Below are positions 21,762 through 29,309 of a stretch of DNA of 57,978 nt, piece by piece. The stretch spans positions 1 to 57,978 of the forward strand of contig CASGEL010000009.1 in NCBI GenBank assembly GCA_949300485.1, in the 5' to 3' direction. Position 1 is the stretch's first letter, and each line of letters begins with the position of its first letter. The translations under genes and the position numbers were made by a program. The stretch is from an uncultured bacterium. Its GTDB lineage: Bacteria; Cyanobacteriota; Vampirovibrionia; Gastranaerophilales; Gastranaerophilaceae. The notes below the pieces were generated by a model. That model had not been told where the DNA came from, ran no database searches, and saw nothing but the letters and a program-made list of their open reading frames with translations.

Positions 21762-24065
21762 CTATGACATTTCTTGAACAAATGATAGGATTGTAGAATA
21801 AAACTGCTCTTTGTTTTCTTCAATAAATTTTAATCTGTCTTTTATTTGTTTCGTTGTATATCGTTTATTATTTATGGCAGAATTTATGATAGATTCTTGA
21901 ATTTCCTTAAGCATAATTTTCAGTTGCTCTTTTGCTTCAATTTGAGTAAGTCTGTCTGTATCTTTATCAAGAATTCTCTGGATATCTTTCAAACATGTAA
22001 GATTAGACAGATATGTGAGTTCTGCTTTTAGTAAATTGGTATTATTTTGGTTTGGAATAATATTATGTTCTTCCATAATTTGAAGTCCAATATTATTTAC
22101 TTCTTTAAACAGATTTTCTCCGACGAGATTGGTATGTCCGTTATATACTTTTTCTTTTAATCCGTCTTCAACAATTTTTTGTGCTTGTTTTTTAGTCATT
22201 CCTTCTGGAAGGTTTGCATTTCTCAACAAAGCTTTAGCGATCCCTGTTGTATTGCCTATAAAGTAGTCTATATGATTAAGTGCATTTTCTATGGCTTCTT
22301 CTGGGGTATATCTTAAAACATTGCCGGTGTCTATAAATGTAAAAGGCTTTTCTCTGTTTGTTATATCAATAAATACATTACCTGGATGCGGATCTGCATG
22401 CATTACCTTCATTCCTTTTTTAGGAACAGATAATAGTTGTTCAAAAAATACTTGGAAATAATTTGTAAGTATTGCAAACATTTCTTTTTCTGAAATCTTT
22501 TTGTTTTGCTTCATCATTTCATCTATAAATTCATTAAATTGAATGCCTGGAGCTTTTTCCATTACATAGATGTTATCTTTTACTTCAATAGGTTTTACAG
22601 CATTATAATGACGTGCATTTTTGCCAAGAATTTGTGTTGCTTCCATTTCTTTTGAAAGGTCTACTTCTTGTACCCAGGCATCATAAAGAGAGTTTATTTT
22701 TCTAGTTAGATAATCCGCTTTTTCAGGATTATCTTTATTTGCATCTTTTAATGCGTTGATAAATAATTGTCTGTCGTTTTCTATTTTTTCTTTAGACATT
22801 CCTTTTTTCAAAAATTTCAAAACAACTTCTTTACCAGTAGTGTTATCTTTGGCAAGAAATGTTTCTGCAACAGTTCCGACACCAAGAGCTTTATCTTTTA
22901 TTATGGTGTATTTATCCCCATATGTTTTAGAGATAAATTCTTGTGCTTCTTTGACAGTTCTTGATTGAGGACAGTCACTTTTAAATCTCGTTATAATTGT
23001 TGCAAAATCATCAAGATTAGTTAGTTTTATTCCCATAATTTCTGGCTGGAAACCTTTTAGCATTCCTAAGACATTTTCAGGAATTGTTTGAAGAAATTTT
23101 GGCAGGAATATATTTTTTTCTTCAATCAATCTCATTTTTTCTTCAATTGATTTCCCTTCACCAAGAATTTCTGTTATAAATTTAGGATCTAAGAGTACTT
23201 GAGCCTGATTTGCAATTTCCATGAAACCTGAGGTACTATCGACTTTTTCGAATGGTTTTAGGTCTTTTATATTTTCAATAGCTTGAGATATAGCTTTATC
23301 CCAGCTTTTTAAAGACGAATTCAGCTTGTGGGTTTTATAAGTAAGTAATCCTGCCCCTGCTGCTTTTATTGCAAGGTTATCCTTTTGCTTTTCAATAAAA
23401 TCTTTTACGGATTTTTTATCATCTCGTTTTATGAATATATATCTTTGTAATGTGTTTTCTCCAAGTACTAAAGGAATTCCAAGCAGTCCGTTTTTCAACA
23501 TCGCAATAGGTGCCATTGCCCCGTCCAAGGCTCCTGTTAAAGTATCTTTCCAGAAGGTTTTATTATCTTTTTTTTCTTTACGTTTTAGATAAATTCTGTC
23601 AATAAATCGTAATGCTGGTTTAAGGGTCATCCCTGTAAGAATAGCAAGGCCTGCAGCTGCAAATTTTGAGTATTTACCTACTTTGATTTTTATATTTTCA
23701 TCCATAAAAGGCTGAGCAAATGCGATAAGTTTTTTGCTTAATGCATATGCTCCAAAGCTTCCTGCACCTGTTAGTGTATCAAGAGTTATTTCTGTTGCAT
23801 CTCTTTGCCCATATTTATAATCTTTTATATATTTATCAGTGCTTTCGTAATCGATTTTTCCTGCTTTATAGTCTTCAATTTTTTGCAAGATTTTTTTCTG
23901 AGATCTGCCGATCCCTGCTATTGATTTGATTTTATCAAATCCTTTAGCCGTTAAACCTTGACGTCTGTTTATTATTTTGTTATCTTCGAGCAGTTTTTCG
24001 CTAAGTTTATCTCTGATAAGTTGTGATTGCGTGTTTGTTCGGGTGAATGTAATATTGTTTTCCAT
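21762..24065 (-). CDS. Divergent ABC1/UbiB-like atypical kinase with a long N-terminal region
   Basis: A 767-aa protein. Residues 340-600 match the ABC1 (UbiB/ADCK) kinase-like fold: Lys417 in VVLKF, the helix Glu in EVDLSKEME (about 467-475), the catalytic loop HADPHPGN (556-563), and a metal-binding segment FIDTGN (577-582) where DFG is replaced by DTG. The ABC1 KxGQ motif appears as KLTN (347-350), and the Ala-rich loop is LGVGTVAETFLA. Residues 1-250 are family-foreign, with Gly/Ala-rich hydrophobic stretches (about 95-120, 130-150 and 178-205). Family members support isoprenoid-quinone lipid metabolism; with altered motifs the role here is open. It is divergent from the 1198-aa gene. Confidence 0.75.
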   Translation of the reverse strand: MENNITFTRTNTQSQLIRDKLSEKLLEDNKIINRRQGLTAKGFDKIKSIAGIGRSQKKILQKIEDYKAGKIDYESTDKYIKDYKYGQRDATEITLDTLTGAGSFGAYALSKKLIAFAQPFMDENIKIKVGKYSKFAAAGLAILTGMTLKPALRFIDRIYLKRKEKKDNKTFWKDTLTGALDGAMAPIAMLKNGLLGIPLVLGENTLQRYIFIKRDDKKSVKDFIEKQKDNLAIKAAGAGLLTYKTHKLNSSLKSWDKAISQAIENIKDLKPFEKVDSTSGFMEIANQAQVLLDPKFITEILGEGKSIEEKMRLIEEKNIFLPKFLQTIPENVLGMLKGFQPEIMGIKLTNLDDFATIITRFKSDCPQSRTVKEAQEFISKTYGDKYTIIKDKALGVGTVAETFLAKDNTTGKEVVLKFLKKGMSKEKIENDRQLFINALKDANKDNPEKADYLTRKINSLYDAWVQEVDLSKEMEATQILGKNARHYNAVKPIEVKDNIYVMEKAPGIQFNEFIDEMMKQNKKISEKEMFAILTNYFQVFFEQLLSVPKKGMKVMHADPHPGNVFIDITNREKPFTFIDTGNVLRYTPEEAIENALNHIDYFIGNTTGIAKALLRNANLPEGMTKKQAQKIVEDGLKEKVYNGHTNLVGENLFKEVNNIGLQIMEEHNIIPNQNNTNLLKAELTYLSNLTCLKDIQRILDKDTDRLTQIEAKEQLKIMLKEIQESIINSAINNKRYTTKQIKDRLKFIEENKEQFYSTILSFVQEMS

Positions 24066-24228: not shown

Positions 24229-27200
24229 ATGGAATGTCCTAAATGCGGAGCGGAAATTAGTAAAAGTGCATTGGTGTGCCCGAATTGCAAGAAGGTACTT
24301 AAAATCGTTTGCCCTGTTTGTAAAACCATAAATACCAAAAATACCTGTAAAAAGTGCGGAGAAATCCTCGTAACAAAGTGTGCAAAATGCGGCAAAATAA
24401 ATTTGATGAAAAATCCAAAATGTATAAAATGCGGATTTTCTAATGAAATAAGTGCAGTTATGGGAGAATCAAATACTGACAATTTTGCAGTATTAAGAAT
24501 AGATTTCCCTAATAGCGACGTTGTAAAAGCTAAATTAGGATCTAATAAATTGTATCAAAAATTCAGGGCAAATTTAGATGCTATGATTGTATCTTATGTT
24601 AATACTCTGAATGTCAGACGGCAAATTATAAATAATGATATTTATATTATAAGATTTAATAAGGATTATACTTTCTCTGCTTCTGCCAATTCTGCAATTC
24701 AGGCAACAATTGAACTTGTTAATTTGATTACGAAATTAAACGTAAAACTCCTAAAGAAAAAAGGAGTTGGTTTAAAGTGTAATTTTACAATAATGAAGCG
24801 TGAAGCCGAACAAAATCCGTACGATATAGATACAAAATTCCATGCAAATATGGTTTATCAAAGTTCCAGCAAAGAAATGAAGGCTTTAGATTCATTTCAA
24901 GTAATTACAGATGAGAATTTTTATGATCTTTATAAAGAAAATTACAAAATGGATTCATTGAATTCTGCAATGGTCGATGGAGTAATGAAAAGATTTTTTG
25001 AAATGAATTTAAAAGAATTTGTTAATATAGGTGAATTCTTGCGTAATGAAGCTCAAAAAGAACAGGAAGAAAATTCTGATGACATAGAGGTTCCGGTATT
25101 TATTCAATCTGCTTTGATTGATCAAGCAAAAATTACTCAGGATGCATTAAAAGCTGAAAATAATATTGAAGATGATGATATTTATGATATTGAAATGATA
25201 AATTTTGATGAAATAAGCTGTTCATTTGTAAAAACTGAAAGTATAAATGTTTTGGATTGTGTTGTTCAGATGCTGGAGCAGCTTCCTATGGGAATTTTGG
25301 CATTAAAAGCCTCTCCGATGTATCAGCCTTATACGTTAAAACTTTTATCAGCAGTAGATGAAATGGGTATTTATGATAATGTTATCCCGATTACTTGTCA
25401 TGATGATATGAAATTTTCGCCGTATTCATTCTTTAGAGATTTGCTTTCTTCAATTTTTGAATATACTGTTTCTCAAAAATTGTTTGATACAAATGATTTT
25501 TCTATGTTTTCAACAATAGATAAGTCAGGATTGGTTAAAGATTTAATAACATTATCTCAACGACAAATGTCGAATATGGAAGATACCAGGGAAAATTATT
25601 GCCAGATATTTTTTGCACTGCTTAAGTCTATTCCTAATACTTTGATTTATATTGAAAATTATGAAAAAATTGATGATAGTTCAAAATTTGTTTTAGAGCA
25701 GTTATTTGATCATTTTGATGAATTAAATATAAGTTATTTGATTTCATATGATAAATCATATGCACTGCATAAAGATTCTCATTTTTTACTATCAAGACCT
25801 TATTATGCCGAAGTTACGCTTACTCCGACTCCATTTGAAACTATTGTTGGTGGAGATCCTGAATTTTATAAAAATATAATGACTGATTTTTATTTTCAAC
25901 GGATTGCAAAATATGCATGCGGCAGTACATTGTTTTTAGATTTTGCAATTCAATATTTGTTGGAAACGGGAGTTTACGAATATACTGAGGATTCTCTTAC
26001 AATGGTTAATCCAAAGACCATTATTATCCCTTCCGGGTTGCCTAAATTGATGAAGCGTAGAATAAATTTACTGAAAGACGATGAGGAAACTATCAGATTT
26101 TTGACTATGCTTGTTCTGTTGGGCACAAGAATTGATGAAAAAACTATTAATTCTTTAGGGTTTAAAAATTGGGAAAAAATAGCGGAAAATCTTGCAGGTA
26201 TGGGGTATATTTATTCTTATAATAATTGCATTTATTTCTCAAATTACAATATATTGAGAGAAAGCCTGCTTGAAGTTATAAAACAAGAGGATTTAAATAA
26301 AGTTGCGAATGATTTATTCCATTTTGTGTATGTAGAAGATATGCCAAATCCAGTTAAAGGCTTTTTATATGATATTCTCGGGCAGGGTGAAAAGGTTGTT
26401 TTTGAATGGGAAAAACTTGCAAATATTAACCTTTCAATGGGCGATTTTTCGGGGTATTTAAATTGTTCAGCTAAAATTTTGGGTACGTTGGAAAAATATT
26501 CGTCATTATGGTCTGAATCAGAACTTATGAAATATAAACTATCTTTGTATGAAAATGTTGCAAATAATATGTATGAATATAATCCTGAACAAACTCAAGA
26601 GTTAGCTGAAAAAACTCTTATAAGTTTAAAATCTTCAGGGAACCCGGATAGTTATATCTCTTTTTGTACCAAAATGATACAGGGAGCTATTGTGCATGGT
26701 GATTATATGTATGCAATGAATCTTACGCATAGTGTATTATCTTCCATGGAAAAATTTTCTATAGATCCCGCTTCTCCTGATTTTAATTTGTATGTACTTT
26801 TAATGTCTATAATTTATGTAAAAATATTATTTAATATAGGTGCATATAGTGATTGCCTTGATATAGGATATAATGTTTTAAATGTTTTAGATTCTGAAAA
26901 AATTAATTCTATACAATATACTATAATTTCGAAATCCGAGTTTAAATTTTTAGTTTCTGAATGTGTAGGTTATGTTGCTCTAGTCGATATAATTTCTCTA
27001 AATGAAGATGTCGGAGAATTTCTAGATATTTCTAGAAAGTTGCTAGATTTTATACCGCAAAAGTATGATATTTTTATTCAGTTGCAAAATTTAATTAAGG
27101 GTAAAGATGTTTCAATAAATCCTTCTATGGCTGGAGAAGATATGTTCTCTGCTATTTTATTTCATATAATGAATGCGTTTGTAGGTTATAAATCTGATCC

Positions 27201-27825
27201 TACAGCATTTGCCCAGGAAATTTATAAGGCAAAGTTAATAGCTAATGAAGCTCAAATGTTTCAGTTTGAAATATTTGCGGATTTAATGATTGGCTATGCA
27301 TATATTCAGCTAAACTCTTTCAAAAAAGCTTCAACAATGATTTATAAAATTATAAAATCAGCTAAAGAAAAAGGTATGAATGCAATTGTACATCTAGGTT
27401 GGTATGTTATGAGTATATTGAATATAAGGGAAGGTAAATTTGATATTGCATATGGAGTATTAAATAATTCTAATATTCAAATGGAAAAACAAGGTGGTAT
27501 AAGTGAATATTTAACCATGCTGAATAAAGTTAATATGTATAAAGTTTTAATGTGTACAAATGCTCAGGAACAGGCTCAGATATGTTTAAATCAAGCTTCT
27601 TATATTGTCCAAAAATACGGATTGAATTTCAATTTAAATATTGACATCAAGAAAATTCTGTTAGAAAATTCAGTTAACGGCAGTCAGGTGCAGAAAGTTC
27701 AAAAAACTGTAAGCACCCCTGTATCGAAGAAAGAGAGTGTATCAGAACAAGGAAAAGAAACTTCAACAGGATTTGATGAAAGTGATAGTGATGTAGTTAA
27801 TCCTTCAGACTTTTTCTCAGATTAG
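24229..27825 (+). CDS. Zinc-ribbon / pseudo-nucleotide-cyclase / pseudo-ATPase / TPR protein
   Basis: A 1198-aa cytoplasmic protein. The N-terminus has six CxxC pairs (residues 3-6, 17-20, 28-31, 40-43, 51-54, 65-68), i.e. three tandem zinc ribbons. Residues about 85-270 resemble a class III nucleotide cyclase fold that lacks recognisable metal-binding Asp and transition-state residues. Residues about 338-600 follow the layout of the AAA_16 ATPases fused to such cyclases (SPYSFFRDLLSSI; Walker-B-like TLIYIENYEKIDDSS). The Walker A position (MGILALKASPMYQ) has no GKT. The C-terminal 500 residues are helical repeats (TPR-like) with an acidic tail. Domain assignment is by pattern and order, so it is probable rather than certain. 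It looks like a catalytically dead scaffold or sensor. glgA follows 38 bases later. Confidence 0.75.
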   Translation: MECPKCGAEISKSALVCPNCKKVLKIVCPVCKTINTKNTCKKCGEILVTKCAKCGKINLMKNPKCIKCGFSNEISAVMGESNTDNFAVLRIDFPNSDVVKAKLGSNKLYQKFRANLDAMIVSYVNTLNVRRQIINNDIYIIRFNKDYTFSASANSAIQATIELVNLITKLNVKLLKKKGVGLKCNFTIMKREAEQNPYDIDTKFHANMVYQSSSKEMKALDSFQVITDENFYDLYKENYKMDSLNSAMVDGVMKRFFEMNLKEFVNIGEFLRNEAQKEQEENSDDIEVPVFIQSALIDQAKITQDALKAENNIEDDDIYDIEMINFDEISCSFVKTESINVLDCVVQMLEQLPMGILALKASPMYQPYTLKLLSAVDEMGIYDNVIPITCHDDMKFSPYSFFRDLLSSIFEYTVSQKLFDTNDFSMFSTIDKSGLVKDLITLSQRQMSNMEDTRENYCQIFFALLKSIPNTLIYIENYEKIDDSSKFVLEQLFDHFDELNISYLISYDKSYALHKDSHFLLSRPYYAEVTLTPTPFETIVGGDPEFYKNIMTDFYFQRIAKYACGSTLFLDFAIQYLLETGVYEYTEDSLTMVNPKTIIIPSGLPKLMKRRINLLKDDEETIRFLTMLVLLGTRIDEKTINSLGFKNWEKIAENLAGMGYIYSYNNCIYFSNYNILRESLLEVIKQEDLNKVANDLFHFVYVEDMPNPVKGFLYDILGQGEKVVFEWEKLANINLSMGDFSGYLNCSAKILGTLEKYSSLWSESELMKYKLSLYENVANNMYEYNPEQTQELAEKTLISLKSSGNPDSYISFCTKMIQGAIVHGDYMYAMNLTHSVLSSMEKFSIDPASPDFNLYVLLMSIIYVKILFNIGAYSDCLDIGYNVLNVLDSEKINSIQYTIISKSEFKFLVSECVGYVALVDIISLNEDVGEFLDISRKLLDFIPQKYDIFIQLQNLIKGKDVSINPSMAGEDMFSAILFHIMNAFVGYKSDPTAFAQEIYKAKLIANEAQMFQFEIFADLMIGYAYIQLNSFKKASTMIYKIIKSAKEKGMNAIVHLGWYVMSILNIREGKFDIAYGVLNNSNIQMEKQGGISEYLTMLNKVNMYKVLMCTNAQEQAQICLNQASYIVQKYGLNFNLNIDIKKILLENSVNGSQVQKVQKTVSTPVSKKESVSEQGKETSTGFDESDSDVVNPSDFFSD

Positions 27826-27863: not shown

Positions 27864-29309
27864 ATGAAGATTTTATTTGCATCTGCTGAGGTTGCACCGT
27901 TTTCAAAAGCAGGCGGGCTTGCTGATGTTGTTGGAAGTTTGCCGAAGGAATTGGAAAAAGATGCAGAAATAGCAATATTCACTCCCTTACATGGTTGTAT
28001 AGATACGAAAAAGTATAATATTAAAGAATTAGAAAATTCTGAGATGTGGATTACTTTTGGTTCCTCTCCTCAGAAGTTTAATTTGTATATGACAAAACTG
28101 CCAGGTACAAATATTAATGTTTTCTTTGTTAAAAATGATTGGTATTTTTCATGTTTTAAAGAAGTGTATCCAAAATATTTGGATCCTAGATATGAACATG
28201 AGCGTTATATTTCATTTTCTTTAGCCGTTATGGAATACGCAAAAGCATTGAATTTCAGAGCTGATGTTATTCATGCAAATGACTGGCATACTGCTATGAT
28301 ACCTTTATATTTACATTCAAATTATAAATTTGATGATTTTTGGAAAAATACAAAATGTGTTTTTGAAATTCATAATCTAGCATATCAAGGTGTTTGGTTT
28401 GAAGACGTGTTAGATTTTGCTAATATGCGTAAAGATATTGTTTATAATCAATGGGGATGTGAGCATTATAATCGTGTAAATTGGATGAAAGGTGCAATAA
28501 ATTATTCAGATAGAGTTGTTGCGGTTTCTCCTACTTATGCAAAAGAAATTTTGGGTTCTGAGTATGGGGAGAATATGGATTATACCCTGCGTGGAATTCA
28601 ATATAAATTGAGAGGCATTTTAAACGGAATTGATTATGATGTTTATAATCCTAAAACTGATAAGTCTTTGGTAAAGAATTTTGATGTGAAAACTTTGGCA
28701 TACAAAGAAGAAAACAAAAAAGCCGTATGTAAATATTTTGGACTTGAGTATAATCCGGATCGTCCTCTTATCGCATTTATATCTCGTCTTGTTGGACAAA
28801 AAGGGATTGATCTGATACGCGATATGCAGTACGAATTACAAAATTTAAATGCTGATTTTGTATTTATAGGCAGTGGGGATAAGGATTATGAAAATTTATT
28901 TATCTGGCTTTCAAATAATACAAAAAATATTCGAGCATATGTTGGCTATAAGGCAGATTTGGCTAATTTAGTATATGGAGGAAGTGATTTCTTTTTAATG
29001 CCGTCAAAATTTGAACCTTGCGGATTGAGTCAATTAATAGCAATGCACTATGGTTCATTACCTATAGTAAGGGCAACAGGAGGTTTGGAAGATACTGTTA
29101 CGGGATATCCTTTAGATAATTCTACAGGTTTTAAATTCTGGGTATATAACGGTTGGGATATGCTAAATGCTATTAAATGTGCACTTTATGTTTATAATGA
29201 TAAGTATGTGTTAAATGCTATGAGAAAGTCAGCAATGGAATCTGATTTTTCGTGGAAGCGCAGTGCAAAAGAGTATTTAAATATGTATCATGAAATAACA
29301 GGGAAATAG
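27864..29309 (+). CDS. glgA: Glycogen synthase GlgA (GT5)
   Basis: Extends alpha-1,4-glucan chains from ADP-glucose. The 481-aa product starts MKILFASAEVAPFSKAGGLAD, with the KxGG nucleotide-sugar-binding loop. It has the HANDWHTAMIPLYL motif, the C-terminal ISRLVGQKGIDLI, and the catalytic-site SKFEPCGLSQLIAMHYG with the conserved Glu. AGAGAGGA at 27852-27860 fixes the ATG at 27864; a GTG at 27843 is less likely. No other glycogen gene is adjacent. It is downstream of, and possibly co-transcribed with, the 1198-aa signalling-like protein. Confidence 0.96.
   Translation: MKILFASAEVAPFSKAGGLADVVGSLPKELEKDAEIAIFTPLHGCIDTKKYNIKELENSEMWITFGSSPQKFNLYMTKLPGTNINVFFVKNDWYFSCFKEVYPKYLDPRYEHERYISFSLAVMEYAKALNFRADVIHANDWHTAMIPLYLHSNYKFDDFWKNTKCVFEIHNLAYQGVWFEDVLDFANMRKDIVYNQWGCEHYNRVNWMKGAINYSDRVVAVSPTYAKEILGSEYGENMDYTLRGIQYKLRGILNGIDYDVYNPKTDKSLVKNFDVKTLAYKEENKKAVCKYFGLEYNPDRPLIAFISRLVGQKGIDLIRDMQYELQNLNADFVFIGSGDKDYENLFIWLSNNTKNIRAYVGYKADLANLVYGGSDFFLMPSKFEPCGLSQLIAMHYGSLPIVRATGGLEDTVTGYPLDNSTGFKFWVYNGWDMLNAIKCALYVYNDKYVLNAMRKSAMESDFSWKRSAKEYLNMYHEITGK

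What the first reader, a model, noticed from the sequence alone, without database searches (positions are those of the whole stretch)
24229..27825. Giant protein with three zinc ribbons, a dead-looking cyclase, a dead-looking ATPase and helical repeats
The domain order matches class III cyclase-AAA_16-TPR signalling proteins. However, the cyclase-like region has no visible catalytic metal Asp pattern, and the ATPase-like region lacks a Walker A GKT (its slot reads MGILALKASPMYQ) while keeping a Walker-B-like strand and the SPYSFFRDLL motif. Six CxxC pairs are added in front. A fully degenerate version kept at 1198 codons suggests a scaffold or sensing role, just upstream of glgA.
Basis: partly seen in the sequence, partly recalled or inferred. 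Interest (0 to 1): 0.62.

Follow-up and report, generated by a model that had tools for sequence, protein, structure and literature searches.

The report
Double pseudoenzyme tied to membrane motor
A large protein of gut-dwelling non-photosynthetic cyanobacteria keeps the shapes of two signalling enzymes whose active sites have been lost, and it is found almost only where a small ion-driven membrane motor, related to that of the Zorya phage-defence system, is also present, so it is probably the motor's inner partner rather than an enzyme.

Summary
ORF 24229-27825 (1198 aa) has three zinc ribbons (12 Cys invariant in 79 orthologues), a class III cyclase fold (CyaB, Z 16.5), a STAND/AAA_16-like module without a P-loop (MalT, Z 16.1) and MalT-like helical repeats. 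All 78 orthologues checked are uninterrupted and dN/dS is 0.04-0.10, so it is a maintained pseudoenzyme.

Three corrections. The zinc ribbons are ancestral, not added. The cyclase decayed long before: relatives with an intact Walker A have the same dead cyclase. Only ATPase loss is special to this protein; it marks one ancient paralogue clade in which the P-loop erodes step by step.

New: this paralogue (DEG) tracks a short-tailed ZorA/ZorB-like motor. Of 191 family genomes, 135 have both, 49 neither and 7 only one (6 of the 7 explained by contig breaks or a diverged DEG). Outside the family, two of 23 genomes have DEG, and the same two have ZorA. The motor is divergently adjacent to DEG in nine genera plus two other families. 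At least three (likely 4-5) joint gains or losses are needed. In the window genus the motor lies elsewhere. glgA follows directly in 97 of 131 scorable genomes. Partnership is strongly supported; the mechanism is inferred.

The parts
24229..27825 (+). Whole gene: 1198-aa double pseudoenzyme (three zinc ribbons, pseudo-cyclase, pseudo-STAND ATPase, winged helix, TPR solenoid, disordered tail)
24229..24438 (+). Three zinc ribbons, six CxxC pairs (residues 1-70)
   Evidence: Pfam DZR 3.3e-9; 12 Cys invariant in 79 orthologues
24466..25023 (+). Class III nucleotidyl cyclase fold without a complete active site (residues 80-265)
   Evidence: AF2 pLDDT 90.2; CyaB Z 16.5, CyaC Z 15.8; metal site columns
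25222..26028 (+). STAND/AAA_16-like module without P-loop (residues 332-600)
   Evidence: MalT Z 16.1 and Apaf-1 Z 15.7; hhalign to intact relatives 96-98% probability
25288..25329 (+). Former Walker A slot, MGILALKASPMYQP (residues 354-367)
   Evidence: aligned with GxxxxGK[S/T] of intact relatives; dN/dS of the slot 0.02-0.07 against the four closest orthologues, 0.13-0.20 against two more
25639..25674 (+). Walker-B-like strand TLIYIENYEKID (residues 471-482), acid E476 kept
26038..27672 (+). Winged-helix-like part and MalT-like TPR solenoid (residues 604-1148)
   Evidence: AF2 secondary structure; MalT domain III 1hz4 Z 19.1
27673..27822 (+). Disordered, fast-evolving C-terminal tail (residues 1149-1198)
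   Evidence: pLDDT under 50; dN/dS 0.28-0.61
27864..29309 (+). glgA (GT5 glycogen/starch synthase), conserved downstream neighbour
   Evidence: Pfam Glyco_transf_5 1.4e-68; adjacent in 97 of 131 scorable genomes

Best explanation
The gene encodes a maintained double pseudoenzyme: three zinc ribbons, a class III cyclase fold and a STAND-type ATPase fold, both without a complete active site, and a MalT-like TPR solenoid. It belongs to an ancient paralogue clade of a zinc-ribbon / pseudo-cyclase / STAND / TPR family. The most likely job is that of the cytosolic partner of a ZorAB-like ion-driven inner-membrane motor. SHOWN: both folds (predicted), loss of Walker A, purifying selection, one clade, near-perfect co-occurrence with a ZorA-like gene, divergent adjacency in many lineages, glgA directly downstream in most. 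INFERRED: the peptidoglycan-anchored ZorB-like subunit senses the envelope, ion flow turns or shifts the short-tailed ZorA-like ring, and the big protein docks on it and relays that state through its pseudo-cyclase, TPR and zinc-ribbon surfaces. Being driven by the motor instead of by its own ATP cycle, it could lose the P-loop. What it acts on is unknown; glycogen synthesis, through GlgA, is the first candidate.
For: Pseudoenzyme: Walker A lost but present in every intact-paralogue row aligned (last residue K, S/T, N or D), with stepwise erosion inside the clade (GNSRSGKL, GETNTGKL, GNKEKGIK, then nothing). Second cyclase metal site lost. dN/dS 0.04-0.10 and 78 open orthologues. Folds. One clade, support 100, 32 rows. 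Motor link: 135 both, 1 DEG only, 6 ZorA only, 49 neither of 191 genomes. The 6: two hold a diverged DEG without ribbons; G170 and G290 also lack glgA, and in G250 and G335 glgA sits at a contig start, so a contig break is likely. Outside the family: DEG in 2 of 23 genomes, ZorA in the same 2. At least 3 joint gains or losses on the intact-paralogue tree, 4-5 in bootstraps. Divergent neighbours in 24 genomes of 9 genera (gap 72-151 nt in 23) and in families f4 and f5. The motor proteins match PADLOC ZorA1 (5e-21 to 8e-26) and ZorB1 (9e-48 to 9e-56) and keep the MotB-type Asp. In Zorya, ZorAB recruits soluble effectors (PMC11890865). glgA.
Against: No physical interaction was tested. Co-occurrence counts genomes, not independent events, and rests on few events (3-5). 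In the window's own genus the motor genes are on another contig (G000:C19), and in several genera the protein is next to neither motor nor glgA. glgA occurs just as well without the protein, so its adjacency may be slow rearrangement: ruvB is also a common neighbour. The intact ATPase paralogue exists in genomes without a motor, so the ancestral role was not motor-related. The motor proteins score below NCBIfam's ZorA and ZorB cut-offs.
Confidence: 0.6

Rival explanations
1. It is mainly a regulator or scaffold of glycogen synthesis: made from one transcript with GlgA, it binds GlgA or glycogen enzymes, and the motor link is secondary.
For: glgA lies directly downstream, same strand, in 97 of 131 genomes where both were located, over protein identities from about 25 to 92%, even where the upstream side has changed from motor genes to ruvB.
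Against: glgA is present in 40 of 41 genera, the protein in 28-29. In 34 genomes the two are not neighbours. In families f4 and f5 the protein sits with the motor, with no glgA match in the stretch.
Confidence: 0.2
2. It is part of an anti-phage system, a Zorya variant in which a pseudo-STAND/TPR protein replaces ZorC/ZorD or ZorE.
For: ZorA1- and ZorB1-like partner; Foldseek also ranks Avs3 and Avs4 among STAND matches.
Against: Present in nearly every genome of the genera that have it, at stable places, inherited with the lineage; no nuclease recognised among the scanned neighbours; no PADLOC match for the protein itself; ZorA lacks the long tail that Zorya needs.
Confidence: 0.1
3. It still binds a nucleotide or other small ligand in the cyclase-like pocket and works as a receptor, not as a pure scaffold (compatible with the motor partnership).
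For: Residue 92 stays D/E in 76 of 79; R131, Q132, R142, N171, N185, Q224 and D228 are invariant and position 218 is K/R in 77; low dN/dS of the cyclase-like region.
Against: Second metal site lost. The phosphate loop GFT is replaced by FPN. Conservation may equally reflect a dimer or partner surface.
Confidence: 0.25
4. An enzyme gene in decay with no present function.
For: Both active sites are incomplete.
Against: 78 uninterrupted orthologues, dN/dS 0.04-0.10, retention in 28 of 41 genera.
Confidence: 0.02

Closest known systems
Zinc-ribbon / class III cyclase-homology / STAND (AAA_16) / TPR signalling proteins, here the intact paralogues L033-L038, L040 and L184
   Same: Same order of domains and same zinc ribbons; same pseudo-cyclase; one family (tree)
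   Different: Walker A is intact in those and absent in the window clade; the intact paralogue also occurs in genomes without the motor
MalT and other STAND regulators (8bob, 1hz4; 6mfv)
   Same: NTPase fold, winged-helix region and TPR solenoid (Z 16-19)
   Different: No P-loop, so no ATP-driven switch in the known way
Class III adenylyl cyclases CyaB and CyaC
   Same: Fold (Z 16.5 and 15.8)
   Different: Second metal site missing, phosphate loop changed, 8-10% identity
Zorya anti-phage systems (ZorA, ZorB with ZorCD or ZorE; PMC11890865)
   Same: The co-occurring pair is ZorA1/ZorB1-like, with a soluble cytosolic partner
   Different: ZorA-like subunit is about 300 aa, without the long cytoplasmic tail; no nuclease recognised; vertical inheritance; partner is a pseudo-cyclase/pseudo-STAND protein

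Membership tests
Class III nucleotidyl cyclase | Catalytic-domain fold | tested here: met
   Model pLDDT 90.2; CyaB Z 16.5, rmsd 2.9, 172 aligned; all 50 rows listed are cyclases
Class III nucleotidyl cyclase | Two metal-binding Asp | tested here: not met
   First position D/E in 76 of 79; second position a gap in 54 of 79 and variable in the rest. Positions inferred from strand order and profile alignment
Class III nucleotidyl cyclase | Transition-state Asn-Arg pair | tested here: inconclusive
   The likely Asn column (214) varies, the likely Arg column (218) is K/R in 77 of 79, but no residue-level structural alignment was available
STAND / AAA_16 NTPase | NTPase fold with winged helix and TPR | tested here: met
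   MalT Z 16.1 over 339-775, Apaf-1 Z 15.7; hhalign to intact relatives 96-98%
STAND / AAA_16 NTPase | Walker A GxxxxGK[S/T] | tested here: not met
   Slot reads KASPMYQP; absent in all close orthologues
STAND / AAA_16 NTPase | Walker B acid | tested here: met
   Residue 476 E in 78 of 79, D in 1
STAND / AAA_16 NTPase | GxP motif before the lid | tested here: not met
   Invariant GS at 565-566, no Pro
Zorya system (for the whole set) | ZorA and ZorB homologues present | tested here: inconclusive
   PADLOC ZorA1 5e-21 and ZorB1 9e-48 in the window genome, but under NCBIfam cut-offs: ZorA 72.8 of 100, ZorB1 59.7 of 400 bits
Zorya system (for the whole set) | Long cytoplasmic ZorA tail | tested here: not met
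   About 300 aa against 420-727 aa models; about 100 residues after the last membrane helix
Zorya system (for the whole set) | ZorC/ZorD or ZorE effector nearby | tested here: inconclusive
   The three genes directly following ZorB in L235 have no PADLOC match; the rest of the genome was not searched

The most novel reading that the evidence does not exclude
A signalling hub that exchanged its power source: a duplicated STAND regulator lost its ATPase site after becoming the cytosolic load of a short-tailed, peptidoglycan-anchored ion-driven motor, so that envelope state (ion flow through the motor) rather than ATP drives its conformational switch, feeding among others into glycogen synthesis in gut cyanobacteria.
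Probability: 0.3. Interest if true: 0.82.

Novelty: new variant of a known kind. Interest (0 to 1): 0.6.

Why it matters
Zorya-type motors are described as phage defence. Here a relative with a short tail appears to be a stable, lineage-inherited cell component, tied to a large protein with two dead enzyme folds. That offers a case in which loss of an ATPase site coincides with acquiring an ion-driven partner, and it predicts a three-part complex that can be tested directly. It also corrects the view that the degeneration is one event: the cyclase died in the ancestor, the ATPase only in this paralogue.

Tried and rejected
Sequence search against solved structures: only weak zinc-ribbon matches. 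Pfam scans of the window protein beyond the zinc ribbons: no cyclase or ATPase match, hence profile alignments and models. Direct hhalign of the window's cyclase-like region with true cyclases: probability 2.4%; the link came through the intact relatives (91.6%) and then the fold. Complementary domain loss (cyclase lost from the active paralogue because the dead one keeps it): rejected as a rule, since family f3 lost the cyclase domain from the active paralogue without having the dead one. Shared C-terminal motif between this protein (DVVNPxDFFSD) and the ZorA-like subunit (DVVDELF): seen in the window genus, matched in 12 of 79 by a loose pattern and absent in other genera, so not a family feature. 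Two paper searches gave no description of this set of genes.

Full report
WHAT IS THERE. The ORF at 24229-27825 (+) encodes 1198 aa. Pfam recognises only the zinc ribbons. Orthologues at 46-92% identity were found in genus g1 and related genera; titles of the records name Candidatus Gastranaerophilales / Melainabacteria from guts. All 78 that were read are open to the end, the 12 cysteines are invariant, and dN/dS against close orthologues is 0.04-0.10 over the gene, low in ribbons and cyclase-like region, high only in the last 50 residues. The gene is under purifying selection.

FOLDS. The full-length AlphaFold2 model (79 sequences) has mean pLDDT 83.6. The region 72-276 alone gives pLDDT 90.2 and pTM 0.88, and every one of the 50 best solved structures listed is a class III nucleotidyl cyclase: CyaB Z 16.5, CyaC Z 15.8. 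Residues 339-775 match the NTPase part of MalT (Z 16.1) and Apaf-1 (Z 15.7); the solenoid matches MalT domain III (Z 19.1) among many TPR proteins; Foldseek's first hit is a STAND protein with TPR.

ACTIVE SITES. Aligned to relatives that keep the ATPase, the Walker A slot reads MGILALKASPMYQP instead of GxxxxGK[S/T]. Walker B keeps its acid (E476, 78 of 79, D in one), and the GxP motif has become invariant GS. In the cyclase fold, residue 92 at the end of the first strand is D or E in 76 of 79, but the second metal position is a gap in 54 of 79. The mapping of cyclase residues is by strand order and profile alignment, not by a residue-level structural superposition.

HISTORY. Relatives in the same order have the same zinc ribbons, a cyclase-like region equally lacking conserved metal residues, an intact P-loop and TPRs; more distant members of the class do too. 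The intact family's cyclase-like region aligns with true cyclases at 91.6% probability, and the window's with the intact family's at 97%. The cyclase was therefore dead before this protein existed. A tree of 60 ATPase-TPR regions puts all 32 sequences with the lost or damaged P-loop (here called DEG) in one clade with support 100, spanning three families. Inside it the P-loop decays stepwise: GNSRSGKL and GETNTGKL, GNKEKGIK, then no trace. Genomes of the window genus also have a second paralogue of about 990 aa (995-codon frame in the window genome) with intact Walker A and no cyclase-like region (L039).

NEIGHBOURS. glgA follows on the same strand in 97 of the 131 family genomes where both genes were located, gap -19 to 290 nt. 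In families f4 and f5 and in nine genera of the window's family, a pair of genes is transcribed divergently just upstream: a three-helix membrane protein of about 300 aa and an OmpA-type protein of about 235 aa. They match PADLOC ZorA1 and ZorB1 but stay under NCBIfam cut-offs. The ZorA-like subunit lacks the long cytoplasmic tail that Zorya requires; the Asp of the MotB-type helix is kept in all copies read.

CO-OCCURRENCE. Over the same 191 genomes, 135 have both DEG and the ZorA-like gene, 1 only DEG, 6 only ZorA and 49 neither (Fisher p 1e-37, not corrected for relatedness). Of the six, two hold a very diverged DEG without ribbons; G170 and G290 also lack glgA, and in G250 and G335 glgA begins at a contig start, so the gene was probably lost to the assembly. 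Among 23 genomes of other families, the same two have DEG and ZorA. On the tree of the intact paralogue the joint trait needs 3 changes at least, 4-5 in bootstraps. The pairing holds in the window genome too, where the motor genes lie on another contig (G000:C19), in a gene row with DUF711 and small unknown genes.

MECHANISM. Shown: folds, lost Walker A, selection, one clade, co-occurrence, adjacency. Inferred: the motor is anchored to peptidoglycan by the ZorB-like subunit; its state is passed to the cytosolic pseudoenzyme, which serves as relay and scaffold. By analogy with Zorya, where ZorAB recruits soluble effectors (PMC11890865), the protein would be the soluble partner. That the P-loop could be lost because the motor supplies the drive is a hypothesis. 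GlgA as target is a weaker hypothesis, as glgA is present with or without the protein.

LIMITS. No interaction was measured or predicted. Presence was scored by sequence search in draft genomes. Class-level statements rest on the genomes held. That zinc-ribbon / cyclase / AAA_16 / TPR proteins also occur outside this class is my own knowledge and was not tested.

Noticed in passing
G000:C19, locus L235 8469-12625: The ZorAB-like pair of the window genome is followed by a DUF711 gene and two related small genes of unknown family; similar small genes lie just downstream of the pair in L212 and L237. A further component is possible.
   Followed up: partly
L176 4190-7894 and 11714-12262; L206 3690-4304: The intact ATPase paralogue is preceded by a 1234-aa protein with a TonB-type C-terminus and followed by a small gene whose relative follows DEG in L206, so the two paralogues share a neighbour.
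   Followed up: no
L184, L186-L193, L199-L202 C-termini: Intact paralogues end in a conserved FCQLNxI-type sequence that DEG proteins lack.
   Followed up: no
L238 5865-10426 and L256 4169-9990: In genus g29 the ZorAB-like pair, and in g97 the DEG gene, lies next to a SecA-like gene.
   Followed up: no
window 24229-27822 C-terminus and L235 8469-9413 C-terminus: In the window genus the tails of DEG (SDVVNPSDFFSD) and of the ZorA-like subunit (SDVVDELF) look alike; not conserved in other genera.
   Followed up: partly
L249 (G045:C200:14014-14568): A second, longer ZorA-like frame (543 aa) in one genome, possibly a true Zorya.
   Followed up: no
window 21762-24065: 767-aa ABC1/UbiB-type atypical kinase next to the gene, patchy among relatives at this place.
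   Followed up: no
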